64,000 nt of DNA. Source: Pocillopora verrucosa. Lineage: Eukaryota > Cnidaria > Anthozoa > Scleractinia > Pocilloporidae. The position numbers and the translations under genes were made by a program. Location: NCBI RefSeq assembly GCF_036669915.1, contig NC_089319.1, positions 21,057,885-21,121,884 of the forward strand, read 5' to 3'. Shown in pieces: positions 1,828 to 61,904 of this stretch. Within the stretch, counting starts at the first letter, position 1, and each line of letters starts with the position of its first letter. Under the pieces are notes generated by a model. That model was not told where the DNA came from. It worked only from the letters and a program-made list of their open reading frames with translations, and searched no databases.

Positions 1828-3444
1828 ATGAGCAGCAATATGCTGATAGAGGTGTTTGGCCAGATCGTATTCAGTTTTACAAGAGGCGTGACAGAGCATT
1901 ACAACCCAGAAGAACCTGAATCAATGGCTTTTGGTTACGATCCTCTACAGGGGACTGGTTTGGAATGGAACTATCAACCTGTTGAGGAGGTTACTTATCA
2001 GGAATACAGCGAGAGAGAAGCAACTAGCTTGGACTATTTAATGGCCTGCAGTCCTAAGGTAAGAATCATAAACGCATGCTCATCAGACGACAATGAAGAA
2101 ACACACGAAAACAGCTCACAAGATGACGAAGATAAAGCAATGGCGTGGAAGCGATTAAGACCATCTGCTCTCCACACTGCTTGGAAATCAATGTACTTTG
2201 GAGCCTCGATCTCACTTCTAACTGCTACTGTCATAGGTTCACTATACATATTGATTTCATTTCTACTGTACAAAACTGTAAACAACTGCGAATTTTACCC
2301 AAAGAAATCCATTCCTGTGAAAGTTCAATGGTTAAGATCAGTATCAGATATAATGTGTTGTAACATCTTGTATAATAGTTTTTTGGGGGTAGTCCTATTT
2401 CTCTTTCGACCTTATCAGATCAAGGGAATAAGAAAAAAACTTATTTTAGCGAGCTGCTGTGGATTTCTATTGGATGCACTTTACCGCGTGTCTCTTCAAG
2501 CCCTCGGAATGTCCCATTCTAAACTTTCTACGATACAAAAGCTTCCACTGTACTTTCTCGTTGCTTTAAGTTTTTCTTGGCAAATACATCTTGTAACAAA
2601 TCATTTTTTATCACGACAATCAACAAGGCAGAGGATTACGTTTTTCTTTCAAGTGGCAATTGTTCCTGTATCTATTATCATTCTTGCAATTCCGGTGGCC
2701 GAGATCATCTACCCAACTTTTAATAAACAAACAATGAATGGCAAACTATTAATCGCTCTCTTTGCGCCTCTAATTGGAGTCGTTCTAAAGGTTACCTCAC
2801 GAATTTGTGTTCAGCGGCTTCACCGGGATTACATTCATCCGGGATATTCATATGTCTTACTGGCACCGTTGGTCGGCTCTTCGGCGATAATGTTTCGTGT
2901 TTTACAAGCAGATCTCGGCAGTTTACAATCCATCGCGATTCTAGGGATAACTCACGGGTTTGTGGAAGTAATCGAAAGAAGCGCAATGGTCTTCATTGAT
3001 CATATTTGCCACTCGATTTGGAAAAGAACAGCCGCTCCTTGGGGAAGTTTTCGCACTCCTCGCCGTGAGAGGCTAATGGCTGATATTACTATTATGAGCA
3101 TGCTGTTTGAATCAACTGCTATAGTTTCCGTCAACGGCTGTTTGTATAAGTTCAATTTCCTTCAAAACACCTCTCTATTAGAAGCGTTGGAGCCTTTTGC
3201 TCTAACAACTTGTCTTCAGTTGGTGATTGAGTGGTTTTTCACCAGCGTATCCCTCGCGATCGAGATTCACCATCAGAACATGGCTGTCATGGCTGTTTGG
3301 CGAAGAAGATGGAAAAGACATACTTCAGTAGCACTTACAACTTCAGTGCTCATAGCATTATGGACTAGCACACTTCTGTTAATTATTGTACATGGAAGAT
3401 TTAACGAGTCTTCGAATCAACCTTGTAAGATGCCGTTTACTTAG
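1828..3444 (+). CDS. Multi-pass membrane protein, group 1, copy A (intact)
   Basis: Single open frame of 538 residues; family not recognised. Residues 1-120 are hydrophilic with an acidic, Ser-rich stretch at about 84-103, then AMAWKRLRPS. About 11 hydrophobic segments follow, near 124-147, 172-193, 204-224, 240-260, 270-295, 306-325, 341-360, 366-388, 417-438, 455-480 and 500-521. The loop at 404-420 (PWGSFRTPRRERLMADI) is nearly invariant in all six copies (one R-to-G change in copy E), as are VNNC near 151-154 and the C-terminal CKMPF. With a cytosolic N-terminus and 11 segments the last Cys and the VNNC Cys would be on the same side. Compared with copies C and E it lacks two residues (LY) after NGCLY, an in-frame 6-base loss. 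It is followed by a candidate AATAAA at 3929. Role unknown; a transporter, receptor or scaffold are all possible. Confidence 0.82.
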   Translation: MSSNMLIEVFGQIVFSFTRGVTEHYNPEEPESMAFGYDPLQGTGLEWNYQPVEEVTYQEYSEREATSLDYLMACSPKVRIINACSSDDNEETHENSSQDDEDKAMAWKRLRPSALHTAWKSMYFGASISLLTATVIGSLYILISFLLYKTVNNCEFYPKKSIPVKVQWLRSVSDIMCCNILYNSFLGVVLFLFRPYQIKGIRKKLILASCCGFLLDALYRVSLQALGMSHSKLSTIQKLPLYFLVALSFSWQIHLVTNHFLSRQSTRQRITFFFQVAIVPVSIIILAIPVAEIIYPTFNKQTMNGKLLIALFAPLIGVVLKVTSRICVQRLHRDYIHPGYSYVLLAPLVGSSAIMFRVLQADLGSLQSIAILGITHGFVEVIERSAMVFIDHICHSIWKRTAAPWGSFRTPRRERLMADITIMSMLFESTAIVSVNGCLYKFNFLQNTSLLEALEPFALTTCLQLVIEWFFTSVSLAIEIHHQNMAVMAVWRRRWKRHTSVALTTSVLIALWTSTLLLIIVHGRFNESSNQPCKMPFT

Positions 3445-4681
3445 AACTGAAGAATGAAGCATACAAAGCACCAAGTCTTCTCTTGGTTTACGATTACAAT
3501 CGTTTCGATATAACTTCAGTAAGAGCAGTCCAGTAACCTACGCAGCCCAATATGGAATCGACTTTGTCGATGTATCGAATCGACTCGCATCGAATCAACT
3601 TCAAAGATAAATCTTGCCCATAGGTATCTAATATTAAGGTCAAGTTAAGATAGAACTCTACACTTGACAGGATTGTGCGTTTAGTTATAACAGTGCTTTT
3701 ATCAAGACATGCATGTTGGAAAAACCCGTATAGGTAATGACATAATTATAAAGTATTCAATGTAATACAGAATACAAAATGAAATGGAGATATTTTTACA
3801 TTATAATATCATTAACAATAGATCTCGCTTTCCTTGATAACCTAGAAGATGAACCTTTCCCTACCAGAAAAGCGTTAAGTGAAAACAAAATTTGTCGATC
3901 ATGGGAAAATTGATAAATAATTTTTGTGAATAAATGGAAAATTGAGTGCTATTAACCTACCATTGGCGACAAAAGTTGTTAACACATTGACCTTTTCAAC
4001 CTCCTATTACTTCAGTTTTATCTATTTTGCCCTTGTTCCTTGATTCCATGAACCTTTGGGGGGAGGGGTGGGGGGGCTTATCATTGATTTAGAGAGTGGT
4101 TGAGAAATGACAAATAGGAAAGTTTTGTAGGGAAAGCAGGATAATGGACGGACGGAATCCGAACTGCACAAGGAAAACCCGCAAATGACTTATTACTTTC
4201 CTTTTCACGAGAAAACAAAAGAAAATAAATTGAGAAAATCATTAGAAAAATAATGAGAATTGTTCAATTTACACTTTTGTGGAATGCATGAAACACAGCC
4301 TAACCAAGAATTTTGAGTAATCATATTATCATATGACACTTGTCATTCACGTCAGCTTATTTTTGCAATTTTTTTTTATCAAGCGAAATTTGCGAAATTA
4401 ATTAATGTGTAACATTCGTTTCATAGAGCATGATTATTGTAGGATACATTAAATCATTGTAAAAAAGGTAACGTAAAAGATTCGGCAAGTGACGAAAGTA
4501 ACGAAAACGAACTTTCTCTATAACAGCTGCGTGACAAAAATTATGGTATGGTTGGAGACTGACAATCCGTACCCCCACCCTGTTAAATTTTACATCTCTC
4601 ACAGTTGAACGTTACTGGGCACTAACATCAGTAAACTTGTAAAATTTTCAGTTCGCTCTGCACTCGATTTACGCGTCCAAA
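3445..4681 (+). other. 3' flank of copy A, shared by the other group 1 genes
   Basis: Probable 3' UTR and spacer, repeated at 22803-24044 and 47720-48962. Candidate poly(A) signals occur near 3929. A G-rich tract at 4058-4076 (runs of 6, 4 and 7 G) is present in all three copies and could form a quadruplex. No conserved ORF: open frames differ between copies. Confidence 0.5.
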
Positions 4682-9118: not shown

Positions 9119-9150
9119 TAGATAAAATCTTCAAACATTTTCGAGGTTAA
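9119..9150 (+). pseudogene. Severed 5' leader of an S1 small gene
   Basis: The leader typical of S1 genes (GATAAAATCTTC ... TTTTCGAGGTT) is present but cut after GAGGTTAA by Fox-derived DNA. The remainder of the same leader resumes at 10084, after another GAGGTTAA. The gene was apparently split by an insertion. Confidence 0.6.
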
Positions 9151-17750: not shown

Positions 17751-18300
17751 TTGAAAGCTTTGAAAATGATCGAAGAGAGACAATGAAGTCATCGAAATTG
17801 TACGGTTTGGATCATTGCCGTATTCCAACCACCCAGCATTTCCAGAAAATTTTGAGAAACCGCAAGATTTTACAAAGTTTAAATCTCGAAACCGGTTAAA
17901 ATGCTGTAAATGTTTGTTTTTTCGTCCTGATTACTCAAAACAAACTCTGTGATAATCAGATTTTTATTCTGAGAAAAGAAAACTAGATAGATAAAAGATA
18001 AATGGATAAATGAGTTTATAAAAACGACTAAAAGAAAGATACCCTGGAGCTGCGTGGCACTGAGTAGCAAAGTATTCAGTAAACATGAAAAGAAAGGTGC
18101 CATGTTTTGGATGATGGTTTCCGTAAATGTAGTTTATTCTGGGTTGTTATGCTCTGTCGCGCCTCGCGTAAAACTGAACACATTATGACCAAAGACCTCA
18201 GTCAGTGTACTGCTACTCATGGCGCTGTTCAAAGTGTTTGACAGACAATGATCAGAAAGGCGGAATTCTATTTCTCTTAAATTAGGTGAGCCTTTCCTTT
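17751..18300. repeat. 550-bp direct repeat, copy 1
   Basis: Essentially identical to 18399-18948. The last ~180 bases also match 40640-40810 and 59430-59600, part of the 5' flank of group 2 genes. Confidence 0.85.
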
Positions 18301-18402: not shown

Positions 18403-18948
18403 AAGCTTTGAAAATGATCGAAGAGAGACAATGAAGTCATCGAAATTGTACGGTTTGGATCATTGCCGTATTCCAACCACCCAGCATTTCCAGAAAATTT
18501 TGAGAAACCGCAAGATTTTACAAAGTTTAAATCTCGAAACCGGTTAAAATGCTGTAAATGTTTGTTTTTTCGTCCTGATTACTCAAAACAAACTCTGTGA
18601 TAATCAGATTTTTATTCTGAGAAAAGAAAACTAGATAGATAAAAGATAAATGGATAAATGAGTTTATAAAAACGACTAAAAGAAAGATACCCTGGAGCTG
18701 CGTGGCACTGAGTAGCAAAGTATTCAGTAAACATGAAAAGAAAGGTGCCATGTTTTGGATGATGGTTTCCGTAAATGTAGTTTATTCTGGGTTGTTATGC
18801 TCTGTCGCGCCTCGCGTAAAACTGAACACATTATGACCAAAGACCTCAGTCAGTGTACTGCTACTCATGGCGCTGTTCAAAGTGTTTGACAGACAATGAT
18901 CAGAAAGGCGGAATTCTATTTCTCTTAAATTAGGTGAGCCTTTCCTTT
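18399..18948. repeat. 550-bp direct repeat, copy 2
   Basis: See 17751-18300. The near-identity implies a very recent duplication or an assembly artefact. Confidence 0.85.
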
Positions 18949-20020: not shown

Positions 20021-20249
20021 AAAACCAAAGAGTAAAAGGAAAATGTCTTATTCCTCAAATTTTGCAGCTTAAAAAAAATTACTGAAAGTTACAGCCTTGA
20101 TTCTGAAAAGAGAAATTTTTTTCTTCGAGCACACACAAATCAACTGAAATAACGCAAATAAAGCGTCTCTGAAAACATTGAAAAGATAAATGGTGCAAAG
20201 TTCTTGTGAAAGACACCAGAGAACAATGTCAGTATCTGACCGTTTGCGC

Positions 20250-20326
20250 ACCTACCCCTCCCCTAACCCAACAGCAGTCAACTGATAGCAAGTAAGGATT
20301 AGTATCGGGTTAAGGGAGGGGTAGGT
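20250..20326. repeat. Foldback element (ACCTACCCCTCCCC arms)
   Basis: Complete copy: left arm from 20250, right arm ending GGGAGGGGTAGGT at 20326. Lies about 0.85 kb before a group 1 gene, as do the copies at 33521 and (farther, with the MITE and SINE) 44282. Confidence 0.65.
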
Positions 20327-21173
20327 ACGCAGTTGCTCGGACTCTAGCTATGACCTTGAACAAATATGTATCTTGTTATCAACGAACATAAGGTGACGAA
20401 TCCCAGTTTCAATTCATCCTTGAAAACTTCCTAAAAAAGATTAAATGTAGTCGCAATCAAATAAAATAACCAATTTTTTTTATCTTTGGTTGAAATTTAT
20501 GTGAGGAAATGATCCTCATCGGTAAGATGCAATTAAAGAAATTGCTGAAAAGAATCCTAAAAAAGTTCGGGTTAGTTGTTATCTTGATCTGACACCAAAT
20601 CCTCGCGATCGTCAATAATTTACAAGTAAATGTATAGCAGCTAAAGGGAGAATTAGTTAATCAGATCTTGAGAGTTATGTCCCCTGTATAGTTTCGAAAC
20701 GTGCCGCTACAAAGTCTCGAAACATCGACATCAACTTCCTTTCTTCTCAATTATAAAATTCACGACAACTAATAATCATTTCATAAAAGCAACGAGACTT
20801 TCCCTAAATTAGTCTAACTAGTTGTTCGACGCCTTTGAAAAATAACTTTAACAGTTGTTTGTCAAGATAACCTGGGAGAGAATTCCTTAAGCTTACGTGC
20901 TGCTGCCCAAGCAGCCGGACCGTTCACACGGTTTGGTCTTGAGTCAAGAATGTAAGAGGAGATAAGGCGAGGAAAGTGTCATTTAAAAGGTAAAAAACAC
21001 GAATGTATGTTTAACACTGAGTCACTGGCCTTTCCTTGAGCCACTTAACTGACAGAAAACAACAACAATAAAATATCGTCTGAGCAAGTTAACATCAAAT
21101 ACAAAAGCGGAGAGCAATAAAATCCTTCGCTTCAGACACCAAACTAAGACATTTGACGTTTAGACAAGGCACC
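20327..21173 (+). promoter_or_regulatory. 5' flank of group 1 copy B
   Basis: Nearly identical to 33598-34444 before copy C. Compared with copies A and E it lacks the GGCCAC foldback element, the SINE and the palindrome. The last ~330 bases are the shared group 1 upstream block. Confidence 0.4.
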
Positions 21174-22802
21174 ATGAGAAGCAATACGCTGATAGAGGTG
21201 TTTGGCCATATCGTATTCAGTTTTACACGAGGCGTGACAGAGCATTACAACCCGGAAGAACCTGGATTAATGGCTTTTGGCTACGATCCTCTACAGAAGA
21301 CTGGCTTAGAATGGAACTATCAACCTGTTGAGGAGGTTACTTATCAGGAATACAGCGAGAGAGAAGCAACTAGCTTGGACTATTTAATGGCTTGCAGTCC
21401 TAAGGTAAGAGTCATAAACGCATGCTCATCAGACGACGATGAGGAAACACACGAAAACAACTCACAAGATGACGAAGATAGAGCAATGGCGTGGAAGCGA
21501 TTAAGACCATCTGCTCTCCACACTGCTTGGAAATCAATGTACTTTGGAGCCTCGATCTCACTTCTAACTGCTACCGTCATAGGTTCACTGTACATATTGA
21601 TTTCATTTCTACTGTACAAAACTGTAAACAACTGCGAATTTTACCCAAAGAAATCCATTCCTGTGAAAGTTCAATGGTTAAGATCAATATCAGATGTAAC
21701 ATGTTGTAGCATCATGTATAATAATTTATTTTTGGTAGTCCTATTTCTCTTTCGACCTTATCAGATCAATGGAATAAGAAAAAAACTTATTTCAGCGAGC
21801 TGCTGTGGATTTCTATTGGATGCACTTTACCGCGTGTTTCTTCAAGCCCTCGGAATGTCCCATTCTAAACTTTCTACGATACAAAAGCTTCCACCGTACT
21901 TTCTTGGTGTTGTAATTATATCTTGGCAAATACATCTCGTAACGAATCATTTTTTTCTCGTTTCACGACAATCAACAAGGCAGAGGATTACGATTTTCTT
22001 TCAAGTGGCAATTGTTCCTGTATCTATTATCATTCTTGCAATTCCGGTGGCCGAGATCATCTACCCAACTTTTAATAAACAAACCAAGAATGGAAAACTA
22101 TTAATCGCTCTCTTTGCGCCTCTAATTGGAGTCGTTCTAAAGGTTACCTCTCGAATTTGTGTTCAGCGGCTTCACCGGGATATCATTCATCCGGGATATT
22201 TATATGTCTTACTGGCGCCGTTGTTCGGCTCTTCGGCGATCATGTTTCGCGTTTTACAAGCAGATCTCGGCAGTTTACAATCCATCGCGATTCTAGGGAT
22301 AACTCACGGGACTGTGGAAGTAATCGAAAGAAGCGCAATGGTCTTTATTGATCATATTTGCCACTCGATTTGGAAAAGAACAGCCGCTCCTTGGGGAAGT
22401 TTTCGCACTCCTCGCCGTGAGAGGCTAATGGCTGATATTGCTATTATGAGCATGCTGTTTGAATCAACTGCTATAGTTTCCGTTAACGGCTGCTTGTAAT
22501 TGTATAAGTTCAATTTCCTTCAAAACACCTCCTTATTAGAGGTGTTGGAGCCTTTTGCTCTAACAACTTGTCTTCAGTTGGTGATTGAGTGGTTTTTCAC
22601 CAGCGTATCCCTCGCGATCGAGACTCACTATCAGAACATGGCTGTTATGGCTGTTTGGCGAAGAAGATGGAAAAGACATACTTCAGTAGCACTTACAACT
22701 TTAGTGCTCATAGCATTATGGACTAGCACACTTCTGTTAATTATTGTGCGTGGTAGATTTCAAGAGTCTTCGAAGCAACCTTGTAAGATGCCGTTTACTT
22801 AG
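21174..22802 (+). pseudogene. Group 1 membrane protein, copy B, nonsense codon
   Basis: Reads as the other group 1 genes from the ATG at 21174 (MRSNTLIEVFGHI) up to VSVNGCL, then a TAA at 22497-22499 where copies C and E have TAT. The frame stays open in phase after the stop to 22802 and ends CKMPFT. Translation would give 441 residues, losing the last two membrane segments and the conserved C-terminal Cys. One base separates it from an open gene, so it may be a recent pseudogene, a segregating allele, or a sequencing error. Confidence 0.75.
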
Positions 22803-24044
22803 AACTGAAGAATGAAGCATAGAAAACACCAAGTCTTCTGTAGGTTTACAGTCGTTTCGATATAACTTTAGTAAGAGCAGTCACGTACCCTACGCAGCCC
22901 ATGTATCGAATCGACTCGTATCGAATCAACTTCGAAGATAAATCTTGCCTATAGGTATCTAATATTGAGGTCAAGTTAAGATAGAACTCTACACTTGACA
23001 GGATTGTGCGTTTAGTTATAACAGTGCTTTTATCAAGACATGCATGTTGGAAAAACCCGTATAGGTAATGACATAATTATAAAGTACTCAATGTAATACA
23101 GAATACAAAATGAAATGGAGATATTTTGACATTATAATATCATTAACAATAGGTCTCGCTTTCCTTGATAACCTCGGAGATGAACCTTTCCCTCCCAGAA
23201 AAGCGTTCAATGAAAACAAAATTTGTCGGTTATGGGAAAATTAATAAATAATTTTTGTGAATAAATGGAAAATTGAGTGCTATTAACCTACCATCGGCGA
23301 CAAAAGTTGTTGACAAATTGACCTTTTCAACCTCCTATTACTTCAGTTTTATCTATTTTGCCCTTGTTACTTGATTCCATGAACCTTTGGGGGGAGGGGT
23401 ATGGGGGGTCTTATCATTGATTTAGAGAGTGGTTGAGAAATGACAAATAGGAAAGGTTTGCAGGGAAAGCAGGATAAAGGACGGACGGAATCCGACCTGC
23501 ACAAGGAAAACCCGCAAATGACTTATTACTTTCCTGTTAACGAGAAAACAAAAGAAAATAGATTGAGAAAATCATTGGAATTAGAAAAAAAATGTGAATT
23601 GTTCAATTTCCACTTTTGTGGAATGCATGAAACACAGCCTAACCAAGAATTTCACGTAATTCTATTTTCATACGACACTTGTCATTCACGTCAGCTTATT
23701 TTTGCAATTTTTTTTATCAAGCGAAATTTGCGAAATTAATTAATGTGTAGTATTCGTTTCATAGAGCATAATTATTGTAGGATACATTAAATCATTGTAT
23801 CCTTTACGATAATCACAGAGTTTTATTTTACGTAAAAGATTCGGCAAGTGACGTAAGTAACGAAAACGAACTTTCTCTATAACAGCTGCGTGACAAAAAT
23901 TATGGTATGGTTGGAGACTGACAATCCGTACCCCCACCCTGTTAAATTTTACACCTCTTACTGGTTGAACGTTACTGGGCACTAACATCGATCAGTAAAC
24001 TTGTAAAATTTTCAGTTCGCTCTACACGCGATTTACGCGTCGAA
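22803..24044 (+). other. 3' flank of copy B
   Basis: Matches 3445-4681 and 47720-48962. Contains AATAAA at 23243 and 23260 and a G-rich tract near 23389. The open frame at 23440-23739 is interrupted in both sister copies and is not taken as a gene. Confidence 0.5.
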
Positions 24045-27700: not shown

Positions 27701-27704
27701 TTTT

Positions 27705-40800: not shown

Positions 40801-41533
40801 TAGGTGTCCCTTTCCTTTCGTAACCTGTTGCGTTCTTTGTGGATATTACGGTTTCGAATCCATTCGAGTCAGAGCAAGGTTCTGAGTCAAACCAAACAAG
40901 ATAATAACGAAGAACAAGTTGTTAGGCTCCATTGGTGGTCAAGTGAAACACTAATTTGATTATCAACTATCAGTGGATAAAGGGAAATTAACCTTGAAAT
41001 ACAACGGACCGAAACGACCTGACTAAACATGGCGATAATGTGGGAACATGTAAAAGGATTTAGAATGACTACACGCCCTTATAGTCAGCTGAAAGGCATC
41101 CGGTGTTTGATTTGAATGATGTGGAAACATGTAAATGACTGTTATTCATTTATTAAGAGCGTGGAACAAAGAAAAAATATGACCCTCCTGCAAGGTTTCG
41201 AACCTAAAAACCCTCAAACATCCAAGCACAACATACATGTTTGAGATCTTTACTCTGAACTGGTCTTCACGTATCGTAAAATTGTGGATAAATATCCTCC
41301 TAATACGCAGTAACTTCCTTCTGACGTAAAGCAGTATCAAACCTGATACCACAGCAGATCGTCTGGAACCCGATGATAAATACTAAAATAACAGCGCTAT
41401 GCATGATTAACGAAACTGGAACTGATATATAACTTGGAATAATATTTCAGTTTCCAAATTTATATTAATATCAATATAACAGTCACCCATCGCAGTACAA
41501 GGATTTTAAACCTCCTTTTTGAGCATATCTCAA
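37806..41533. other. Long spacer before group 2 copy D
   Basis: No gene supported. Parallel to 57000-60290. Includes a degenerate AAAACCG-rich tract (38449-38546, copy at 57639-57740), the ACATCACGGCGGCTATA block, and a 60-90 codon open stretch on both strands near 40188-40473 also present at 58929-59265, whose ends differ between copies. 40640-41290 is the group 2 upstream flank, also at 59430-60050 and, damaged, at 18150-19829. Confidence 0.4.
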
Positions 41534-43147
41534 ATGTCTAGCGTTACACTCATAGCTGAGGCTTTTGGCCATATCGTGTACAGTTTTACACGAGGTGTAA
41601 CAGAGTATTACAACCCAGAGGAACCTGAGATAACGGCGCGGGTTTTTGATCCTTTACTGAACAATGGACGCGAGTGGTTTCACCATCCTGTCGACGAGGT
41701 CATTTATCAACAATACAGCTACAGAAAGGCCACGGCTCAGGACTATCTACCTTCCAGCGATGTCCGTGCGAGGCTTATCGACGCCTCTTCCGTAGAGCAC
41801 CCAGAAGTACCAGACAGTCAAATAGAGGGAGATGAAGCAATGGCTTGGAAGCGACTCAGACCATCCGTTCTCCTCTCAGGTTGTCAATCAATGTACATTG
41901 GCTCTCTGATTTCATTTTTAACGGCTACCTTTGTAGGTTCAGCGTTCATACTGACATCGTACATATGTTACGAGACTGTAAACAACTGCCAATTCTACCC
42001 AAAGGAGTCTATTCCAATAAGAATACAGTGGATGAGATCGATCTCGGATATCATTGCCTGTGCCTTCCTTTACATTTGGTTCTTGGTGTATTTGCTATTT
42101 CTTTTCCGTCCGTATCAGTTAAAAGGAGTGAAAAGAAAACTATTTTTAGTCTGTTGTGTGACGTACTTCTTGGATTCACTTTATCGCTTGGGTCTTTAAG
42201 TCCTGAATATATCCCATTTCAATCTATCTTCAGTGCAGAAGATTCCTATAAATATTTTGTTCGTCACGAACGATTGCGTCCAGGCATATTTATTGACTAA
42301 ACATTTCCGCCCTACAACGAAGAAAGGACAGCTGATTTTGTTCCTTCAACTGATAGTACCTGCTTATTTTTGTTTGTTTCTAGCCATTCCAGTGGCATCG
42401 TTGATTTATCCAGCTTACATTAAACAAGACAATGAAGGGAAATTACTAATCGCTCTATTTGCTCCTCTCATTGGAGTCGTACTCGAAGTCATCTCACGAA
42501 TTTTTGTTCAGCGCTTATGCAACATTACTCATCCGGGATATTCGTATGTCTTACTGGCGCCGTTGTATTGCGCTTCGGCGGTTATGTTCCGCATTTTACA
42601 AGCGGAACTAGATAACTTAAAGTCCATCGCTATTATTGGGATTATTCACGGCGCTGCAGAGGTCATAGAACGAAGCACCATGGTTGCAATTGATCATCTG
42701 TGCCATGCGATTCTGAAAAGAGAATCAACTCCTTGGGGAAGTTTTCGCACTCCTCGCCGTGAGAGACTAATGGCTGATATCGCTATCATGAGCATGTTGT
42801 ATGAATCAATTGCTATAGTGTCTGTAAACGGCGTTTTATACTTGTATCAAATGATATACTTACAAAACGAAACCTTTGTAAATTTACTCAAGTATTTTGC
42901 CATTTTCACTTCTGTTCCACTGGTGATCGAGTGTTTCTTTATCACCCTATCGATTATGATCGCTACACGCTATCAGAATATGCCTATCATGGCCATATGG
43001 CGAAGAAGATGGAAAAGACATATAGTTCTGGCGATTATTACGTCAGTGTCTGTAGCAAATTGGACCAGTACAAACCTTTTAGTGATTGTCCATCAGCGCT
43101 TTGCTGAAGATTCGTCAAATAAGACTTGTAAAATGCCGTTTAGTTAA
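41534..43147 (+). pseudogene. Group 2 membrane protein, copy D, nonsense codon
   Basis: Starts MSSVTLIAEAFGHIVYSFTR at the ATG 41534 and is co-linear with copy F throughout. A TAA at 42197-42199 stands where F has CAA (Gln) after YRLGL, cutting translation at 221 residues in the third membrane segment. The frame stays open in phase to CKMPFS at 43147. Other differences from F include VVLEVIS for VVLKVIS and AYIKQ for AYNKQ, perhaps relaxed constraint. The AATAAA at 43286 is intact. Confidence 0.78.
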
Positions 43148-44281
43148 GTTGGCATATGATTACCACCTTTGCTTCCTCAAAATAGGATACTTTGTAGATG
43201 CATTTTGTTTTGTTTTTCGTCAGTTTTCTATTCATTCTCGTCTGCATGCTTTCGGACAGGTAGTGAAATAAGCTTCATTTGTGAAAATAAATAACGAAAG
43301 AGGGCAAATAAAATCTTGAGTTCGGTCTGTGAAACCGTGATGATGACTGGCACGCCTTTTAGTCAGCCAAAAGGCATCCTGCAGCGGTTTAAAATTATTT
43401 TTGTAAGTAACGTCACTCCAAGACTTGAGGTTCTTCTAGCTAAGTGGTGGCATGCACAGTTCTTTAAGGTGTGGTTGTTAACAGAATTCATTTGTCAAAC
43501 AGGGTATCGGTTTTACCAGTTTGGGTCTAAAATTGGGTTTGGTTTTCCATTTCACCTGAACTCGGTGTCTTGATTGGTGTGTGGAGAGAAAGGAGCAGAA
43601 ATTATGTAGGAACAGAAATTGTGACTGATTATGCAACCCGCTGTGAAATCATTGCTTCTGAAATTGGTACACGTTCGCATCTCACTAATTAAAAGCAGCC
43701 ATTATACTTGTTATCCTGTGACTTAAATTCGTCGCTGTCGATGTTACAGCTGAGTTCTAGACCAAGAAGTCGGGTCGAGTGTCCGGCATGACTACGCTCT
43801 GGATTTTTAGGGTCATGTCTGTGGAGGGAAGGTAAGGCGGTTTTGAGAAGGATGCCGCACTTTCCCCATGCGAAATCTTCTTGAAATTACCTTCTCCCCC
43901 TGGAAAAGGTTTCGTGTTTAGAATCGAAACTCCCTAAAATTATACATAAGCATACTTCTGATGGTGTTGTCTTGCTGATATCAAACAATACTAACAACCC
44001 TGTATTGCTGATCACACAACAAACATTGCATGTGATATGAAAACCAAAGAGTAAAAGGAAAAGTAAAGAAATGTCTTATTCCTCAAATTGTACAGCTTAA
44101 AAAATTACTGAAAGTTACAGCTTTGATGGTGAAAAGAAAAATTGTTTTTTGCGAGCTTTTACAACACGTAAATCAAATAAAAATTGTAAATAAAGCGCCC
44201 CTAAAAACAATGAAAAGATAAATGGTGCAAAGTTCTCGTGAAAGACACCGGGGAACAATGTCAGTATCTGAGCAACTACGC
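43148..44281 (+). other. 3' flank of copy D
   Basis: Repeated at 61905-63033 and partly at 19830-20249. Poly(A) signal AATAAA at 43286. An 85-codon frame (43316-43573) is identical in the 62 kb copy but lacks an initial ATG and probably reflects recent duplication. Confidence 0.5.
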
Positions 44282-44358
44282 ACCTACCCCTCCCCTAACT
44301 CAACAACAGTCAACTGATAACAAGCAAGGATTAATGTCGGGTTAAGGGAGGGGTAGGT
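44282..44358. repeat. Foldback element (ACCTACCCCTCCCC arms)
   Basis: Complete copy. Marks the start of the unit that repeats 1-1827 of the window. Confidence 0.65.
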
Positions 44359-44433
44359 ACGCAATTGCTCTGACGCTGACTATGACCTCGAACAAATATG
44401 TATGTCGTTATAAATGAACACAATGTTACGAAT

Positions 44434-44628
44434 AACAGATAATTTGGTGTTAACAACTGAGTTGAAAACATAAATTGGCCACCGTAAATAGTGTAAAGGC
44501 TGACGTTTCGAGCGTCGGCCCTTCGCCAATCGCTCTGACGAAGGACTAAGATCAAAATGTCAGCTTTTAACCTCTTTACGGTGGCCAATTTACGTTTTCA
44601 ACTCAGTTGTTAACCCTAAATTATCTGT
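44434..44628. mobile_element. MITE-like foldback element (GGCCAC family)
   Basis: Near-identical to 154-348 and 63187-63380. Confidence 0.65.
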
Positions 44629-44841
44629 CATACTCTCTCACCGACGCAGCACCACAGTTTCCTTAGGTGACGAATCATAGTTTCAATTTATCTTTGAAAA
44701 CTTCCTCAAAAAAATCAAATGGAGTCGCAATCAAATGAAATAGCAATTTTTTTTACCTTCGGTTGAAATTTATGTAAGGAAATGATCCTCATCGGTAAGC
44801 TGTAATTGAAAGAAATTGCAGAAAAGAATCTTGAAAAAGTT

Positions 44842-44965
44842 CAGGCCTCGACGAGATTCGAACCTCTTCCTTTAGACACTAATTGGGCGCCACAACCACC
44901 TGAGTTACGAAACCACATGTTCAGAGCAAGGCCTGGGGGCAGTTGTCGGTGGGCCTCGCTTCAAA
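44842..44965 (-). mobile_element. tRNA-derived SINE-like element
   Basis: Same as 563-690, one change near the B box (GACGAGATTCG for GACCAGATTCG on the + strand). Confidence 0.45.
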
Positions 44966-46096
44966 ACAAATGAAGTTGATTTTGAGTCGCCAACCGGCTG
45001 ATATGACCGAGACCGGAAACGTTAAGTATAAAGTTTCGAGAGTAACTCAAAACAGGTAAAATGCAGCAAATGAATTAATTTTCAAAAATATTACCAATTA
45101 CTTTCGTTACTCTGAAATTATCAATATTATCAAAAATAAAGTTGCCAATATGGTCAACATGAACAGCGAGAATTTCGGGAACGAATCATAAACGTACTAG
45201 TTTTTTGCCACAACGTGTTAATAATTACTCCAATGGACGAGGGTACATTGATTCATCATCACTTTCTAGCAGCATGTTTGGTAACTAGGTTAAGCCTTAA
45301 CCTAGTTACCAAACATGCCGTCGGACAGCCCATAAAAATAAACAAACTCAGTGCAGCTTCGTTAGAAACTACTCAGAGTCCCTTGATGGACGATATCAGA
45401 TAACTTCTATCGGCCACGTTTGCATTTGATACAAAAAAAGGTTATCAAGTCTCTTATTTACAGTTTAACCCTTTAACTCTCAAAAGTGATTAACATCTTA
45501 CTTCTCCCTATAATATCCATACATTATCCAACAAACAAGTAATAAGAAACACAAACGTATCAGTAGTTGTTATCTTGATCCAACACCAAATTCTCGTCAC
45601 TAGTTTACAAGTAAGTGTGTGGCAGCTATAGGGGAGAGTTAATTAATCAGATCGTGGAAGTTATGTCCTCTGTTAAGTTTCGAAACGTCGACATCAACTT
45701 CCTTTCCTGTCGGTAATAAAGTTCACGACAACTAATAATCATTCCATATAAACAACGGGACTTTCCCTAAATTAGTCAAGCAAACAGCTGTTTGTCAAGA
45801 TAACCTGGGAGAGACTTACTTTAGCTTACGTACTGCTGCCCTAGCAGCCGGACCGTTCACACGGTTTGGTCTTGAGTCAAGAATGTAGGAAGAGATGAGG
45901 CGAGGAAAGTGTCATTTAAAAGGTAAAAAACACGAATGTATGTCTAACACTGAGTTCCTTGAGCCACTTAACTGACAGGAAACAACAACAATCAAATATC
46001 GTCTGAGCAAGTTAACATCAAATACAAAAGCGGAGAGCAATAAAATCCTTCGCTTCAGGGACCAAACTAAGACAATTGACGTTTACAAAAGACACC
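44966..46096 (+). promoter_or_regulatory. 5' flank of group 1 copy E
   Basis: Repeats 691-1827, including the palindrome at 45271-45319 and the final shared upstream block. A 15-base piece (CACTGGCCTTTCC) present before copies A-C is missing near 45955. Confidence 0.35.
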
Positions 46097-47719
46097 ATGA
46101 GTAGCAGTACGCTGATAGAGGTGTTTGGCCATATCGTATTCAGTTTTACAAGAGGCGTGACAGAGCATTACTACCCAGAAGAACCTGAATCAATGGCTTT
46201 TGGTTACGATCCTCTACAGGGGACTGGTTTGGAATGGAACTATCAACCTGTTGAGGAGGTTATTTATCAGGAATACAGCGAGAGAGAAGCAACTAGCTTG
46301 GATTATTTTATGGCCTGCAGGCCTAAGGTAAGAGTCATAAACGCATGCTCATCAGACGACGATGAAGAATCACACGAAAACAATTCACAAGATGATGAAG
46401 ATAGAGCAATGGCGTGGAAGCGATTAAGACCATCCGCTCTCCACACTGCTTGGAAATCAATGTACTTTGGAGCCTCGATCTCACTTCTAACTGCTACCGT
46501 CATAGGTTCACTATACATATTGATTTCATTTCTACTGTACAAAACTGTAAACAACTGCGAATTTTACCCAAAGAAATCCATTCCTGTGAAAGTTCAATGG
46601 CTAAGATCAATATCAGATACAATGTGTTGTAGCATCATATATAATAGTTTTTTTTTGGTGGTCCTATTTCTCTTTCGACCTTATCAGATCAAGGGAATAA
46701 GAAAAAAACTTATTTCAGCGAGCTGCTGTGGATTTCTATTGGATGCACTTTACCGCGTGTTTCTTCAAGCCCTCGGAATGTCCCATTCTAAACTTTCTAC
46801 GATACAAAAGCTTCCACTGTTCTTTCTCAGTTTTGTAAGTTTTTCTTGGCAAATACATCTTGTAACGAATCATTTTCTATCACGACAATCAACAAGGCAG
46901 AGGATTACGTTTTTCTTTCAAGTGGCAGTTGTTCTTGTATCCCTTGTCATCCTTGCAATTCCGGTGGCCGAGATCATCTACCCAACTTTTAATAAACAAA
47001 CCATGAATGGCAAACTATTAATCGCTCTCTTTGCGCCTCTAATTGGAGTCGTTCTAAAGGTTACCTCACGAATTTGTGTTCAGCGGCTTCACCGGGATTA
47101 CATTCATCCGGGATATTTATATGTCTTACTGGCGCCGTTGTTCGGCTCTTCGGCGATAATGTTTCGTGTTTTACAAGCGGATCTCGGCAGTTTACAATAC
47201 ATCGCGATTCTAGGGATAATTCACGGGATTGTGGAAGTAATCGAAAGAAGCGCAATGGTCTTTATTGATCATATTTGCCACTCGATTTGGAAAAGAACAG
47301 CCGCTCCCTGGGGAAGTTTTCGCACTCCTCGTGGTGAGAGGCTAATGGCTGATATAACTATTATGAGCATGCTGTTTGAATCAACTGCTATAGTTTCCGT
47401 CAACGGCTGTTTGTATTTGTATAAGTTCAATTTCCTTCAAAACACCTCCTTATTAGAAGTGTTAGAGCCTTTTACTCTAACAACTTGTCTTCAGTTGGTG
47501 ATTGAGTGGTTTTTCACCAGCGTATCCCTCGCGATCGAGACTCACTATCAGAACATGGCTGTTATGGCTGTTTGGCAAAGAAGATGGAAAAGACATACTT
47601 TAATATCACTTACAACTTCTGTGCTCATAGCATTATGGACTAGCACAATTCTGTTAATTATTGTGCATGGAAGATTTAAGGAGTCTTCGAATCAACCTTG
47701 TAAGATGCCGTTTACTTAA
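46097..47719 (+). CDS. Multi-pass membrane protein, group 1, copy E (intact)
   Basis: 540 residues from the ATG at 46097 (MSSSTLIEVFGHIVFSFTR). Same layout as copy A: acidic hydrophilic N-terminus with SSDDDEESHENN, about 11 hydrophobic segments, TVNNCEFYPKKSIP loop, PWGSFRTPRGERLMADI (G replaces the R of all other copies), VNGCLYLYKF, and CKMPFT end. It differs from A at scattered positions, many in hydrophobic segments (for example SFVSFSWQIH, VVLVSLVILA). One of three intact copies here. Family not recognised; located in a membrane by sequence only. Confidence 0.84.
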   Translation: MSSSTLIEVFGHIVFSFTRGVTEHYYPEEPESMAFGYDPLQGTGLEWNYQPVEEVIYQEYSEREATSLDYFMACRPKVRVINACSSDDDEESHENNSQDDEDRAMAWKRLRPSALHTAWKSMYFGASISLLTATVIGSLYILISFLLYKTVNNCEFYPKKSIPVKVQWLRSISDTMCCSIIYNSFFLVVLFLFRPYQIKGIRKKLISASCCGFLLDALYRVFLQALGMSHSKLSTIQKLPLFFLSFVSFSWQIHLVTNHFLSRQSTRQRITFFFQVAVVLVSLVILAIPVAEIIYPTFNKQTMNGKLLIALFAPLIGVVLKVTSRICVQRLHRDYIHPGYLYVLLAPLFGSSAIMFRVLQADLGSLQYIAILGIIHGIVEVIERSAMVFIDHICHSIWKRTAAPWGSFRTPRGERLMADITIMSMLFESTAIVSVNGCLYLYKFNFLQNTSLLEVLEPFTLTTCLQLVIEWFFTSVSLAIETHYQNMAVMAVWQRRWKRHTLISLTTSVLIALWTSTILLIIVHGRFKESSNQPCKMPFT

Positions 47720-48962
47720 AACTGAAGAATGAAGAATAGAAAACATCAAGTCTTCTGTAGGTTTACAGTCGTTTCGACATAACTTTAGTAAGAGCAGTCA
47801 CGTACCCTACGCAGCCCATGTATCGAATCGACTCGTATCGAATCAACTTCGAAGATAAATCTTGCCCATAGGTATCTAATATTGAGGTCAAGTTAAGATA
47901 GAACTCTACACTTGACAGGATTGTGCGTTTAGTTATAACAGTGCTTTTATCAAGACATGCATGTTGGAAAAACCCGTATAGGTAATGACATAATTATAAA
48001 GTACTCAATGTAATACAGAGTACAAAATGAAATGGAGATATTTTGACATTATAATATCATTAACAATAGGTCTCGCTTTCCTTGAAAACCTAGGAGATGA
48101 ACCTTTCCCTACCAGAAAAGCGTTAAATGAAAACAAAATTTGTCGGTTATGGGAAAATTAATAAATAATTTTTGTGAATAAATGGAAAATTGAGTGCTAT
48201 TAACCTACCATCGGCGACAAAAGTTGTTAACACACTGACCTTTTCAACCTCCTATTACTTCAGTTTTATCTATTTTGACCTTGTTACTTGATTCCATGAA
48301 CCTTTGAGGGGAGGGGGTAGGGGGGTCTTATCATTGATTTAGATTGTGGTTGAGAAATGACAAATAGGGAAGGTTTGCAGGGAAAGCAGGATAAAGGACG
48401 GACGGAATCCGACCTGCACAAGGAAAACCCGCAAGTGACTTATTACTTTCCTGTTCACGAGAAAACAAAAGAAAATAAATTGCGAAAATCATTGGAATTA
48501 GAAAAATAATGAGAATTGTTCAATTTCCACTTTTGTGGAATGCATGAAACACAGCCTCAACAAGAATTTCGAGTAATCATATTTTCATTTGACACTTGTC
48601 ATTCACGTCAGCTTATTTTTGCAATTTTTTTTATCAAGCGAAATTTGCGAAATTAATTAATGTGTAGTATTCGTTTCATAGAGCATAATTATTGTAGGAT
48701 ACATTAAATCATTGTATCCTTTACGATAATCACAGATTTTTATTTTACGTAAAAGATTCGGCAAGTGACGTAAGTAACGAAAACGAACTTTCTCTATAAC
48801 AGCTGCGTGACAAAAATTATGGTATGGTTGGAGACTGACAATCTGTACTCCCACCCTGTTAAATTTTACACCTCTTACTGGTTGAACGTTACTGCACACT
48901 AACATCGATCAGTAAACTTGTAAAATTTTCAGTTCGCTCTACACGCGATTTACGCGTCGAAA
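47720..48962 (+). other. 3' flank of copy E
   Basis: Matches the flanks of copies A and B. G-rich tract near 48306-48326. No conserved frame. Confidence 0.5.
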
Positions 48963-49447
48963 TGAAGCGAGGAAATGAAGCGAGGAAATAAAGTCTTAAC
49001 TCGATTTGCAATTCTAGTTCTTTTCGCTTGCTTCATGTACCCACGTCTACTTTATAAGTCAATAACATCGTTTACAACGGAAGAAATCAATTCAAATCAC
49101 CGTGGTTCCGCTCGGTCGAATTTGATGCAACCAAAACAACTCGAAGAGTGCAATTAGAAACAACCTCGGCGTCATCACAAAATTGCGTCAAACCCTCCAT
49201 GGATGACTTTCCAAACGATTATATGACCCAGTATCAGCGACGGAAGCAAAGAGGTGTTGTAATTCATTTTCTTCTGGCCATTTATATGTTTGGAGCATTG
49301 GCCTCAATATGCGACGATAACTTCGTTCCCTCGCTGGAACAGATCACCAACAAGCTTCATATGGGCTCTGATGTTGCTGGTGCGACTTTTATGGCGGCTG
49401 AAAGCTCTGCTCCTCCGTTGTTTGCCTCGTTAATTGTTCGTGTTTGA
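48963..49447 (+). pseudogene. SLC24: SLC24 (NCKX) exchanger 5' fragment, copy 3 (best preserved)
   Basis: Starts with a duplicated ATGAAGCGAGGAA. The second ATG (48975) reads MKRGNKVLTRFAILVLFACF, a hydrophobic N-terminus, to a stop at 49155. The next segment is in another frame: ETTSASSQNC, then QRRKQRGVVIHFLLAIYMFG, CDDNFVPSLEQ, SDVAGATFMAA and SSAPPLFASLI. This is the SLC24 order up to the first alpha repeat. The frame change is shared with copy 1, so it predates duplication. GSSAPELF of active exchangers is ESSAPPLF, losing the key Glu. It ends in a stop and no later exons are present. Confidence 0.75.
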
Positions 49448-57000: not shown

Positions 57001-60000
57001 TTTGTGATTTAACTCGAATGTATTAGGTTACGTTGATTTCTTGTGGTCGTGAGAATGAATCGTTTATATCATGACCAGTAACGTTTAACTTACATAGAAC
57101 ATGAAGTATCAGTCGCGAGTATATGCTTGTAAATTATTTCTTTTATTAGGAGTTTTTTTTGTATCTCATTTTTTTTGGTTTGTTTTACAATTGATTTCCT
57201 TTCGTTTAAACGAATTTTGAACTTAAAGTTACAGTTCGTGTCGCTTTGAATTAATAAACAAACTTGTAGGTCTGATGTCTTTATTAGTTTTAGTCTGAAC
57301 AACTTTATCTGTGGCCAAAAGACTGATCCTTGGCAATTTTGAGGAATAAAAAGGAGCGGTCGTTACTTTGAAGATTTTAGCAAGATTGCCCAAAGATGCG
57401 TCACCTGAAAATGACCATAACTATTCCCTTAACGATTGAGAACGAACGGTAAACAAAAGATTGCGTGACTTCTAAATTGACATTTCCTTATGCAAATTGT
57501 TTTGTGAAAAGTTTCGGGGATTCCCCAGTCCGTAAATGACGTCATGTCTCACTTGTGCGGTACAGAATCGAAGGAGGAAATTTGAACCAAAGGTGGTGAG
57601 CTGAACCGTTAGTAGAGGGGGGCTTTGGGACCTATTAGAAACCGCACAACCGTAGAAAAAGTCATCCAAAACCGAAAAACCGCAAAAAAATTCGATCAAA
57701 ACCGAAAACCGCATGCAAAACTGTCAAAACCGATACATTTTCACATCCCAGTTATTAAAACCCTGATCGATCCGATACAGTGGTGACAAGTGAAACATAC
57801 AGAGTAAACTACACTAAATTCATTACAGGATTTATAAAGGCCATGGACTTGGCATTCGTATCTTCTAGTATCTGCTTAAATTAACAGTTGCTCTCCCCAG
57901 GACCTCTAGCGTAGTCTCTGCGGACCCAGCAGCTGGTAATGGAGCCTAGTCTAAAGGAATTCGCACAAAAGTCCCCTATAGGATTGCAGTTTTGCAGTCG
58001 CAAAAAGCTATAGCTCTGGAAAGTTTCATCGAAAATCCTTAATCTAACATTTCCATTTACGAACCAAGAGCTGAAATTTGGAGATTTAATTGGAATGTTG
58101 AATCAACTTGGTCACCAACTTCGAGGTGGCGTTGATAAAAAAAACCCACCCTACGTGTGGCCATACCCTCCCCTCCCCCACCTTGCCGAAAATCCCACTG
58201 CCCCCCTCCCTTAGTAGGTTCCTTTGGATAAACGGAAAAGGTCGTCTTAAATGACATCCTGTTGCTTGCGTGGACGTGCGTTTCCTGTAGTAATTTTTCA
58301 CGGCTGAGCTATTTATTTTTGGAGGATGCTTGACAGCAGGTATCAAGAAATTTCGATTTCAACAAAGATCGTCGTTTCTGAAACGAAAAAAATACTCTTT
58401 GATACTTCAGCGTTAAGTTTCCGAGCATTGACTTACAGATTGGGTTCGACAAGTACTTTGTGCTCAGTGATACAACTCCAAGCGACAAGGAGCCGAGCAT
58501 AAGACATTCCCCAGTTTTAGGGAAGTAGATGATGCAACTAGCGCAATGTTTCTCTTTGACATCACGGCGGCTATACTGTATAACGTAAAAAATAAGCTAA
58601 TTTATCATTTTATGAACCTCATCGTAGCTGTCCAGTCACCATAATTCAAACTTCTCAGTTCAACATGATTTAGATCATAGGATCATAGCTTTTCAAAGTA
58701 AGATTAGGTGACAACCTTTTTTGAAATAGGTGTATGCCCTTGGCCAGACTTGAGTTCACTATTTCAGTATAGGACAGGAAACCGAACACACTAGTGTCAA
58801 GAGTTTTTAATGACTTGTGGGCTGCAATGTCAGCCTCCATCAATTCTCGAGTAAAGTGTTGACACAATTCTCCTTATTTTAATTGAGAGAATTGCTAATT
58901 GGCCTTGGCCAGACTTGAGCGCACTATTTCAGTATACTAGTCCAACACCCGTAGTATCACTACCCTTGATCTCAAGGATCCAGTTCCATCCAGGTATCCC
59001 AGTTACCCTGCTCACAGGGTCTAGTTGAATAATAATTGTTAACCAAATAAAATGAAATGACATACATTGAAATACGACATTGAAATTATCATTTTTTTTC
59101 CTTTTGTTGTTTTTTTTCATTACCTTTTTTTCCTCAGTGAATTCCTTCGTTTGTATCTTCTGGTTCATGGTCTTCCTTGTGGAGGAGGCACAGTTTTTCC
59201 AGCCATGGTCCTCGATAATATCTAACGGGCGTAATCTAAGTTTCATGGTACCGTTGTCTTCATAGCAAATTCGGATAACTGTTCGTCTAGGGCTATCGTC
59301 TGTTCGTTTTGGGTTATCTCACAACTGCGACTTTTGTAACGCTACATTCTTGATAAATAACTTTCATCAAAAGGTTGTTAGATCCATTTGCGACCCGTAC
59401 TTTATAGAGGATCGAAGCCAAAAGACTACGCCGTAAATGTAGTTCATTCTGGGTTGTTATTCTCTGTCGTGCCTCGCGTAAAACTGAACATATTATGATC
59501 AAAGACCTCAGTCAGTGTCCTGCTACTCATGGCGCTGTTCAAAGTGTTCGACAGACAATAATCAGAAAGGTGGAATTTCATTACTCTTAAATTAGGTGTC
59601 CCTTTTCTTTCGTAACCTGTTGCGTTCTTTGTGGATATTACGGTTTCGAATCCATTCGAGTCAGAGCAAGGTTCTGAGTCAAACTAAACAAGATAATAAC
59701 GAAGAACAAGTTGTTATGCTCCATTGATGGTTAAGTGAAACACTAATTTGATTATCAACTATCAGTGGATAAAGGGAAATTAACATGGCGATAATGTGGG
59801 AACATGCAAAAGGATTTAGAATGACTACCACGCCCTTATAGTCAGCTGAAAGGCATCCGGTGTTTGATTTGAATAATGTGGAAACATGTAAATGACTGTT
59901 ATTCATTTATTAAGAGCGTGGAACAAAGAAAAAATATGACCCTCCTGCAAGGTTTCGAACCTAAAAACCCTCAAATATCCAAGCACAACATACATGTTTG

Positions 60001-60290: not shown

Positions 60291-61904
60291 ATGTCTAGCG
60301 TTACACTCATAGCTGAGGCTTTTGGCCATATCGTGTACAGTTTTACACGAGGTGTAACAGAGTATTACAACCCAGAGGAACCTGAGATAACTGCGCGGGT
60401 TTTTGATCCTTTACTGAACAATGGACGCGAGTGGTTTCACCATCCTGTCGACGAGGTCATTTATCAACAATACAGCTACAGAAAGGCCACGGCTCAGGAC
60501 TATCTACCTTCCAGCGATGTCCGTGCGAGGCTTATCGACGCCTCTTCCGTAGAGCACCCAGAAGTACAAGACAGTCAAATAGAGGGAGATGAAGCAATGG
60601 CTTGGAAGCGACTCAGACCATCCGTTTTCCTCTCAGCTTGTCAATCAATGTACATTGGCTCTCTGATTTCATTTTTAACGGCTACCTTTGTAGGTTCAGC
60701 GTTCATACTGACATCGTACATATGTTACGAGACTGTAAACAACTGCCAATTCTACCCAAAGGAGTCTATTCCAATAAGAATACAGTGGATGAGATCGATC
60801 TCGGATATCATTGCCTGTGCCTTCCTTTACATTTGGTTCTTGGTGTATTTGCTATTTCTTTTCCGTCAGTATCAGTTAAAAGGAGTGAAAAGAAAACTAT
60901 TTTTAGTCTGTTGTGTGACGTACTGCTTGGATTCACTTTATCGCTTGGGTCTTCAAGTCCTGAATATATCTCATTCCAATCTATCTTCAGTGCAGAAGAT
61001 TCCTATAAATATTTTGTTCGTCACGAACGATTGCGTCCAGGCATATTTATTGACTAAACATTTCCGCCCTACAACGAAGAAAGGACAGCTGATTTTGTTC
61101 CTTCAACTGATAGTACCTGCTTATTTTTGTTTGTTTCTAGCAATTCCAGTGGCATCGTTGATTTATCCAGCTTACAATAAACAAGACAATGAAGGGAAAT
61201 TACTAATTGCTCTATTTGCTCCTCTCATTGGAGTCGTTCTCAAAGTCATCTCACGAATTTTTGTTCAGCGGTTATGCAATATTACCCATCCGGGATATTC
61301 GTATGTCTTACTGGCGCCGTTGTATTGCGCTTCGGCGGTTATGTTCCGCATTTTACAAGCGGAACTAGATAGCTTAAAGTCCATCGCTATTATTGGGATT
61401 ATTCACGGCGCTGCAGAGGTCATAGAACGAAGCACCATGGTTGCAATTGATCATCTCTGCCATGCGATTCTGAAAAGAGAATCAACTCCTTGGGGAAGTT
61501 TTCGCACTCCTCGCCGTGAGAGACTAATGGCTGATATCGCTATAATGAGCATGTTGTATGAATCAATTGCTATAGTGTCTGTAAACGGCGTTTTATACTT
61601 GTATCAAATGATATACTTACAAAACGAAACCTTTGTAAATTTACTCAAGTATTTTGCCATTTTCACTTCTGTTCCACTGGTGATCGAGTGTTTCTTTATC
61701 ACCCTATCGATTACGATCGCTACACGCTATCAGAATATACCTATCATGGCCATATGGCGAAGAAGATGGAAAAGACATATAGTTCTGGCGATTATTACGT
61801 CAGTGTCTGTAGCAAATTGGACCAGTACAAACTTTTTAGTGATTGTCCATCAGCGCTTTGCTGAAGATTCGTCACATAAGACTTGTAAAATGCCGTTTAG
61901 TTAA
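60291..61904 (+). CDS. Multi-pass membrane protein, group 2, copy F (intact)
   Basis: 537 residues from the ATG at 60291 (MSSVTLIAEAFGHIVYSFTR); an upstream TTG in frame is not used. Same architecture as group 1: hydrophilic N-terminus (YYNPEEPEITARVFDP), a shorter acidic stretch, MAWKRLRPS, about 11 hydrophobic segments, TVNNCQFYPKESIP, GKLLIALFAPLIGVVLK, PWGSFRTPRRERLMADI, and CKMPFS end. Divergence from group 1 is strongest in the acidic linker and in segments 2-5. It is the only intact group 2 copy in the window. Poly(A) signal AATAAA at 62038. Function unknown. Confidence 0.85.
   Translation: MSSVTLIAEAFGHIVYSFTRGVTEYYNPEEPEITARVFDPLLNNGREWFHHPVDEVIYQQYSYRKATAQDYLPSSDVRARLIDASSVEHPEVQDSQIEGDEAMAWKRLRPSVFLSACQSMYIGSLISFLTATFVGSAFILTSYICYETVNNCQFYPKESIPIRIQWMRSISDIIACAFLYIWFLVYLLFLFRQYQLKGVKRKLFLVCCVTYCLDSLYRLGLQVLNISHSNLSSVQKIPINILFVTNDCVQAYLLTKHFRPTTKKGQLILFLQLIVPAYFCLFLAIPVASLIYPAYNKQDNEGKLLIALFAPLIGVVLKVISRIFVQRLCNITHPGYSYVLLAPLYCASAVMFRILQAELDSLKSIAIIGIIHGAAEVIERSTMVAIDHLCHAILKRESTPWGSFRTPRRERLMADIAIMSMLYESIAIVSVNGVLYLYQMIYLQNETFVNLLKYFAIFTSVPLVIECFFITLSITIATRYQNIPIMAIWRRRWKRHIVLAIITSVSVANWTSTNFLVIVHQRFAEDSSHKTCKMPFS

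What the first reader, a model, noticed from the sequence alone, without database searches (positions are those of the whole stretch)
1828..61904. Unrecognised ~540-residue, ~11-segment membrane protein family in a two-group tandem array
Six copies share a hydrophilic acidic N-terminus, about 11 hydrophobic segments and near-fixed motifs (PWGSFRTPRRERLMADI, TVNNC, CKMPF), yet I cannot place them in any known transporter or receptor family. Both groups keep an intact member, which suggests two retained roles. This is the best candidate here for an undescribed system.
Basis: partly seen in the sequence, partly recalled or inferred. Interest (0 to 1): 0.75.

Follow-up and report, generated by a model that had tools for sequence, protein, structure and literature searches.

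The report
Coral-expanded 11-segment membrane protein family
Stony corals carry tandem arrays of a membrane protein with no recognised relatives, in which one half varies strongly between copies and the other half is nearly frozen, as expected of a sensing or transport family whose specificity is diversifying, although its function is untested.

The parts
1828..3444 (+). Copy A, group 1, intact single-exon ORF, 538 aa
21174..22802 (+). Copy B, group 1, one in-frame stop at codon 442
34445..36072 (+). Copy C, group 1, frameshift near 35,700 inside the PWGSFRTPRRERLM motif
41534..43147 (+). Copy D, group 2, one in-frame stop at codon 222; 97% identical in protein to F
46097..47719 (+). Copy E, group 1, intact, 540 aa
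60291..61904 (+). Copy F, group 2, intact, 537 aa from the ATG
40571..40744 (-). Antisense remnant of the family's N-terminal ~55 residues, 5' of copy D
   Evidence: 53-57% identity, best E 4e-12
59363..59536 (-). Antisense N-terminal remnant, 5' of copy F
18785..18874 (-). Antisense N-terminal remnant (28-31 residues)
18137..18226 (-). Antisense N-terminal remnant (28-31 residues) in a perfect 551-base tandem duplicate
41026..45248 (+). Duplicated block carrying D, 98.4% identical to 59782-64000, which carries F
44286..49304 (+). Duplicated block carrying E, 93.7% identical to 1-4995, which carries A
20154..23152 (+). Duplicated block carrying B, 97.3% identical to 33425-36440, which carries C

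Best explanation
A coral-expanded family of 11-helix membrane proteins that works as a variable recognition protein: most likely a ligand-gated channel-type receptor. Shown by sequence: single-exon genes, tandem segmental duplication with broken copies (birth and death), hypervariable helices 2-5, near-invariant helices 6-10 with charged residues inside the helices, two invariant cysteines (C154 between TM1 and TM2, C534 near the C-terminus). Predicted: 11 helices. Inferred from charge bias: N-terminus and the PWGSFRTPRRER and RRRWKRH loops inside, C-terminus outside, so that the two cysteines could form an outer disulfide. Inferred as mechanism: helices 2-5 form the ligand half that is diversified copy by copy, and helices 6-10, with invariant R324, R355, E378, E381, R382, D389, D417, E426, N434 and E468, form the common conducting or gating core, coupled to the N-terminal acidic tail. 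Residue numbers count from base 60285, two codons before the ATG of copy F.
For: Family size and tandem arrangement: 1146 and 1170 hits at E<=10 in two searches; one listed members on one 33.5-Mb Oculina contig (told by equal contig length), several with neighbouring LOC numbers. Structure: pLDDT 79.5, pTM 0.81 with 150 rows. Variability: mean entropy 1.23-1.69 bits in TM2-5 against 0.45-0.78 in TM6-10 over 149 rows, many variable sites swapping polar and non-polar residues. The same contrast in young paralogues: pN/pS in TM2-5 0.89 (A-E), 1.49 (A-B), 0.75 (B-E), 1.73 (A-C), 0.90 (C-E) against 0.30, 0.28, 0.23, 0.42, 0.37 in TM6-10; Fisher p 0.004-0.04 for nonsynonymous changes in those five of six group-1 pairs (B-C not tested), p 0.00003 for A-F; synonymous changes did not differ in A-E, A-B and B-E (p 0.19-1) and were borderline in A-F (p 0.055). 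Invariant charges within helices, 149 of 149 rows. Overall constraint: corrected dN/dS 0.27 between groups.
Against: No sequence or significant fold match to any receptor, channel or transporter. Helices 2-5 may be lipid-facing or under relaxed constraint; entropy shows no helical face in TM2-5 (permutation p 0.35-0.98), which argues only weakly against that. In TM2-5 pN/pS exceeds 1 in two pairs only, on 4-4.5 synonymous changes; B-E also exceeds 1 in TM11 and the C-terminus (1.13), outside the proposed ligand half; D-F shows no contrast (p 0.73). The group-1 pairs share branches and are not independent; the Fisher counts were rounded. Loops such as L1, L4 and L9 are variable too. No expression data, no ligand.
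Confidence: 0.4

Rival explanations
1. Secondary transporter or exporter: the charged TM6-10 residues are a coupling-ion site and TM2-5 a substrate site varied between copies, for example for metabolites exchanged with symbionts.
For: Invariant acidic and basic residues within helices, common in ion-coupled transporters (general knowledge). Sub-threshold MFS_1 match in 2 of 42 members, best E 0.0009.
Against: MFS_1 scored 16.1 bits against a cut-off of 33.4 for copy F; no MFS chain among the 50 VIA-align rows shown for either model, which excludes nothing; 11 rather than 12 helices predicted.
Confidence: 0.25
2. Divergent TMEM16/OSCA/TMEM63/TMC-type channel or lipid scramblase without ligand recognition; the variation tunes gating or membrane interaction.
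Confidence: 0.17
3. Mostly neutral passenger array: recent segmental duplication copies the genes, the coral tolerates them, and TM2-5 drifts under relaxed constraint.
For: Three of six copies are broken; the duplicated blocks carry other sequence too.
Against: dN/dS 0.27 between groups and pN/pS 0.23-0.42 for TM6-10 between young copies; both groups are older than the Pocillopora-Oculina split and still have intact members.
Confidence: 0.1
4. Polytopic membrane enzyme, for example an acyltransferase, with the conserved HG at 374-375 and acidic residues as catalytic centre.
For: H374 in 98.7% of 149 rows beside invariant E378, E381, R382, D389; 11 helices are typical of MBOAT enzymes (recalled); HHAT chains appear in Foldseek at E 0.68 and 1.1.
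Against: No MBOAT match in the Pfam scan of 42 members; no HHAT among the 50 VIA-align rows shown for either model, which excludes nothing.
Confidence: 0.08

Closest known systems
TMEM16 (anoctamin) / OSCA-TMEM63 channel and scramblase superfamily
   Same: Best structural alignments of both predicted models; ~10-11 helices
   Different: No Pfam match, profile test uninformative; C-terminus predicted outside; middling Z and high rmsd; no large cytosolic domain between helices as in OSCA (recalled)
Tandemly amplified coral receptor families, e.g. rhodopsin-like GPCR orthogroups (PMC10236652, section 13 read)
   Same: Tandem duplication, coral amplification, multi-pass membrane protein
   Different: 11 predicted helices, no GPCR match in Pfam
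Insect odorant/gustatory receptors and GRL proteins (recalled, no call)
   Same: Inside N-terminus, outside C-terminus (predicted here), variable ligand half plus conserved core, birth-and-death gene arrays
   Different: 7 helices and ~400 residues; no Pfam match here
Conserved 'dark' orthogroups of stony corals (PMC13044578; abstract, results section and passages read)
   Same: Taxonomically narrow, unannotated, often membrane proteins
   Different: The parts I read name no family recognisable as this one; whether one of its 244 orthogroups is this family was not checked

Membership tests
TMEM16/OSCA/TMEM63/TMC superfamily | Shared 10-11 helix fold | tested here: inconclusive
TMEM16/OSCA/TMEM63/TMC superfamily | Match to the family's Pfam models | tested here: not met
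   Of 21 families listed for 42 members at E<=10 none is Anoctamin, RSN1_7TM or TMC (model names recalled)
TMEM16/OSCA/TMEM63/TMC superfamily | Profile-profile similarity | tested here: inconclusive
   Probability 0.2-0.4%, reversed controls 0.2-0.6%, but the OSCA-TMEM16 positive control reached only 0.4-0.7% (default local mode)
TMEM16/OSCA/TMEM63/TMC superfamily | Calcium-binding acidic residues on TM6-8 (TMEM16; recalled) | tested here: inconclusive
   Invariant E378, E381, E426, E468 in TM8-10, but no residue-level superposition is available
Major Facilitator Superfamily | MFS_1 profile above cut-off | tested here: not met
   16.1 bits against 33.4 for copy F; 2 of 42 members matched weakly, best E 0.0009
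Major Facilitator Superfamily | 12-helix pseudo-symmetric fold | tested here: inconclusive
   11 helices in the models; no MFS chain among the VIA-align rows shown
Rhodopsin-like GPCR | Seven helices and a 7tm_1 profile match | tested here: not met
   11 helices; no match in 42 members
Insect OR/GR and GRL receptors | Seven helices and the family profiles | tested here: not met
   11 helices; no match in 42 members
MBOAT acyltransferases | MBOAT profile match | tested here: not met
   No match in 42 members
Chemoreceptor-like repertoire (works like) | Ligand response of individual members | not testable with these tools
   Needs heterologous expression
Chemoreceptor-like repertoire (works like) | Variable half, conserved core, birth and death of gene copies | tested here: met
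   that the variable half binds ligands is inference

The most novel reading that the evidence does not exclude
Stony corals turned an 11-helix protein of the TMEM16/OSCA type into a repertoire of tens to hundreds of single-exon channel receptors per genome, with a copy-by-copy diversified ligand half and a frozen ion-conducting half: an independent animal chemoreceptor (or partner-recognition) superfamily.
Probability: 0.13. Interest if true: 0.88.

Novelty: new variant of a known kind. Interest (0 to 1): 0.52.

Why it matters
How corals sense prey, symbionts, neighbours and settlement cues at the receptor level is poorly known (general knowledge). A family of this size, invisible to domain annotation, would be missed in studies that filter on annotated genes. 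The split between a variable and a frozen half gives a direct, testable prediction of which residues set specificity, and the possible TMEM16/OSCA resemblance, if confirmed, would extend that superfamily to a new job.

Tried and rejected
Prokaryote or virus relatives: scans of viral contigs and genome contigs with alignment A1, each seeded by two peptide patterns only, found none (19 and 107 pattern stretches, none confirmed). Viral fold library: no significant match. RNA genes: no Rfam match at gathering score and no tRNA in the window. A mobile-element origin was not tested directly; no Pfam or PHROG domain of an element was found in the copies. The TMEM16 link by sequence: profile comparison with three sequences and with 120 fungal homologues added gave nothing beyond the controls (score 22.0; reversed family 23.2; 20 block shuffles 13.8-24.1, one of them higher), but the positive control scored 21.2, so this is a failed test, not a negative. 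VIA-align listed GPCR chains only over short parts and no MFS or MBOAT chain among the rows shown; absence there excludes nothing. A Pfam scan of the second forkhead region and of ORF 28954-29598 failed because the first stretch has stops; the forkhead copy was read in a script instead and the other ORF was not scanned. Literature: searches (listings, up to 20 rows each) showed no title or abstract start that describes this family; I read parts of three papers only (PMC10236652: section 13 and passages; PMC13044578: abstract, results section and passages; PMC12314368: passages). LOC111343942 and LOC131774171 occur in no held paper.
Full report
What is there. The window encodes six copies of one protein on the + strand: A 1828-3444, B 21174-22802, C 34445-36072, D 41534-43147, E 46097-47719 and F 60291-61904. 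The DNA pattern for the PWGSFRTP motif occurs six times against 0.01 expected in shuffled sequence. A, E and F are intact single-exon reading frames of 537-540 residues. B and D each carry one in-frame stop (codons 442 and 222) and C one frameshift. A is about 91% identical in protein to B, C and E; D and F are 97% identical; A and F 57%. Four antisense fragments match only the first 28-57 residues, so remnants of further copies exist.

How the array arose. Self-comparison shows duplicated blocks of several kilobases: 1-4995 with 44286-49304 (93.7%), 41026-45248 with 59782-64000 (98.4%), 20850-24202 with 45783-49132 (94.9%) and 20154-23152 with 33425-36440 (97.3%). Bases 1-967 match 63038-64000 (97.2%), so the array continues beyond both ends. 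The closest pairs, B-C (dS 0.021 over the shared part) and D-F (dS 0.028), could in principle be two haplotypes assembled in line; the other pairs have dS of 0.069 or more.

Whose genome. Copy E is letter for letter the database entry P0126, listed on a contig of 23,802,514 bases; a named Pocillopora verrucosa protein, P0132, is on a contig of the same length. The window is therefore that species or a very near one. The own-genome search was unreachable throughout, so genome-wide copy number in Pocillopora is unknown.

Family size and distribution. With copy F, 1146 proteins had E<=10 among 7992 scored candidates; with copy A, 1170 among 7996. These totals include an unknown number of chance hits near E 10, and only the best 120 of each are listed, all below 1e-200. 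Every named row is a stony coral (Stylophora pistillata, Oculina patagonica, Pocillopora verrucosa), called uncharacterized or hypothetical; most rows are unnamed. By equal contig length, 22 listed members lie on one 33.5-Mb Oculina contig (20, two more), several with neighbouring LOC numbers, and 15 on one 1.41-Mb contig. No relative was found in viral or prokaryote contigs, with two seed patterns each. I therefore call it coral-expanded; restriction to corals or to Cnidaria is not shown.

Age of the two groups. In a midpoint-rooted tree of 169 tips (164 homologues and five window copies; C and one fused model left out), D and F group with Stylophora P0003 (support 1.0) and, more loosely, with Oculina P0006 (0.39, then 0.92-0.96 for the wider clade). 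A, B and E group with Oculina P0019 and P0048 (0.76, then 0.98). Both groups thus predate the Pocillopora-Oculina split.

Known families. No Pfam model reached its cut-off for three window copies or any of 42 members (the lowest E was MFS_1, 0.0009, matched by 2 of 42). NCBIfam and PHROGs gave nothing at E<=0.1 for three copies, and PDB sequences gave nothing by profile and only E 0.8 hits with copy F.

Topology. The loops PWGSFRTPRRE (5 K+R) and RRRWKRH (6 K+R) are strongly basic and fall on the same side as the N-terminus if there are 11 helices, so N inside and C outside is the likeliest arrangement (inference by the positive-inside rule). The other loops are nearly neutral and decide little, and one consensus sequon (332) falls on the side that I take as inside. 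Only two cysteines are invariant, C154 between TM1 and TM2 and C534 near the C-terminus (149 of 149); both would be outside and could pair. A sequon at the TM9-TM10 loop, outside in this topology, is present in 76 of 149 rows and one near the C-terminus in 58 of 149.

Variable half and frozen half. Over 149 rows, mean entropy is 1.48, 1.23, 1.45 and 1.69 bits in TM2, TM3, TM4 and TM5, against 0.78, 0.76, 0.62, 0.45 and 0.75 in TM6 to TM10; TM1 (0.92) and TM11 (1.12) lie between, and the loops after TM1, TM4 and TM9 are variable (1.47, 2.31, 1.65). Many variable sites swap polar and non-polar residues. The near-frozen half carries charged residues inside helices that never vary in 149 rows: R324, R355, E378, E381, R382, D389, D417, E426 and E468, and also N434. 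Among young group-1 paralogues pN/pS in TM2-5 is 0.75-1.73 and in TM6-10 0.23-0.42; nonsynonymous changes differ between the two parts in all five pairs tested of six (p 0.004-0.04, rounded counts), while synonymous changes do not in the three of those pairs tested (p 0.19-1). A-F shows it too (p 0.00003; synonymous p 0.055), D-F does not (p 0.73). B-E also has pN/pS 1.13 in TM11 and the C-terminus. The group-1 pairs share branches, so this is one repeated signal rather than five. It fits relaxed or diversifying selection of helices 2-5; values above 1 rest on few synonymous changes.

Reading. The pattern of a frozen, charged core with a diversifying half, single-exon genes, tandem arrays and frequent broken copies resembles chemoreceptor or recognition repertoires (general knowledge). 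I take a receptor-channel as likeliest (0.40), a transporter next (0.25), then a plain TMEM16/OSCA-like channel or scramblase (0.17), a neutral array (0.10) and an enzyme (0.08). None of the functional steps is shown.

Prior work. Pervasive tandem duplication in corals, with expanded orthogroups dominated by membrane receptors, adhesion and signalling, is published (PMC10236652, section 13 read). Conserved 'dark' coral orthogroups, many putatively membrane-associated, are also published (PMC13044578, results read). Tandem expansion by non-allelic recombination is proposed for Acropora (PMC12314368, passages).

Noticed in passing
6414-7268 (-): Single open reading frame with a forkhead DNA-binding domain (Pfam Forkhead E 5e-41) inside the array region.
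   Followed up: partly
9134-9532 (-): Second, truncated forkhead copy: the frame leaves the domain part-way; the 717-base block 9156-9871 is 99.4% identical to 6895-7611.
   Followed up: partly
17751-18301 and 18399-18949: Perfect 551-base tandem duplicate, each copy with an antisense N-terminal remnant of the membrane protein family.
   Followed up: partly
52646-56551: Three head-to-tail units of about 1.2-1.3 kb, 91-92% alike, of unknown nature.
   Followed up: no
154-350, 44435-44631, 63187-63383: Self-complementary ~197-base palindromes (82%) repeated in the duplicated blocks, perhaps a small inverted-repeat transposable element.
   Followed up: no
28954-29598 (-): Open reading frame of 214 residues without an assignment; its Pfam scan did not run.
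   Followed up: no
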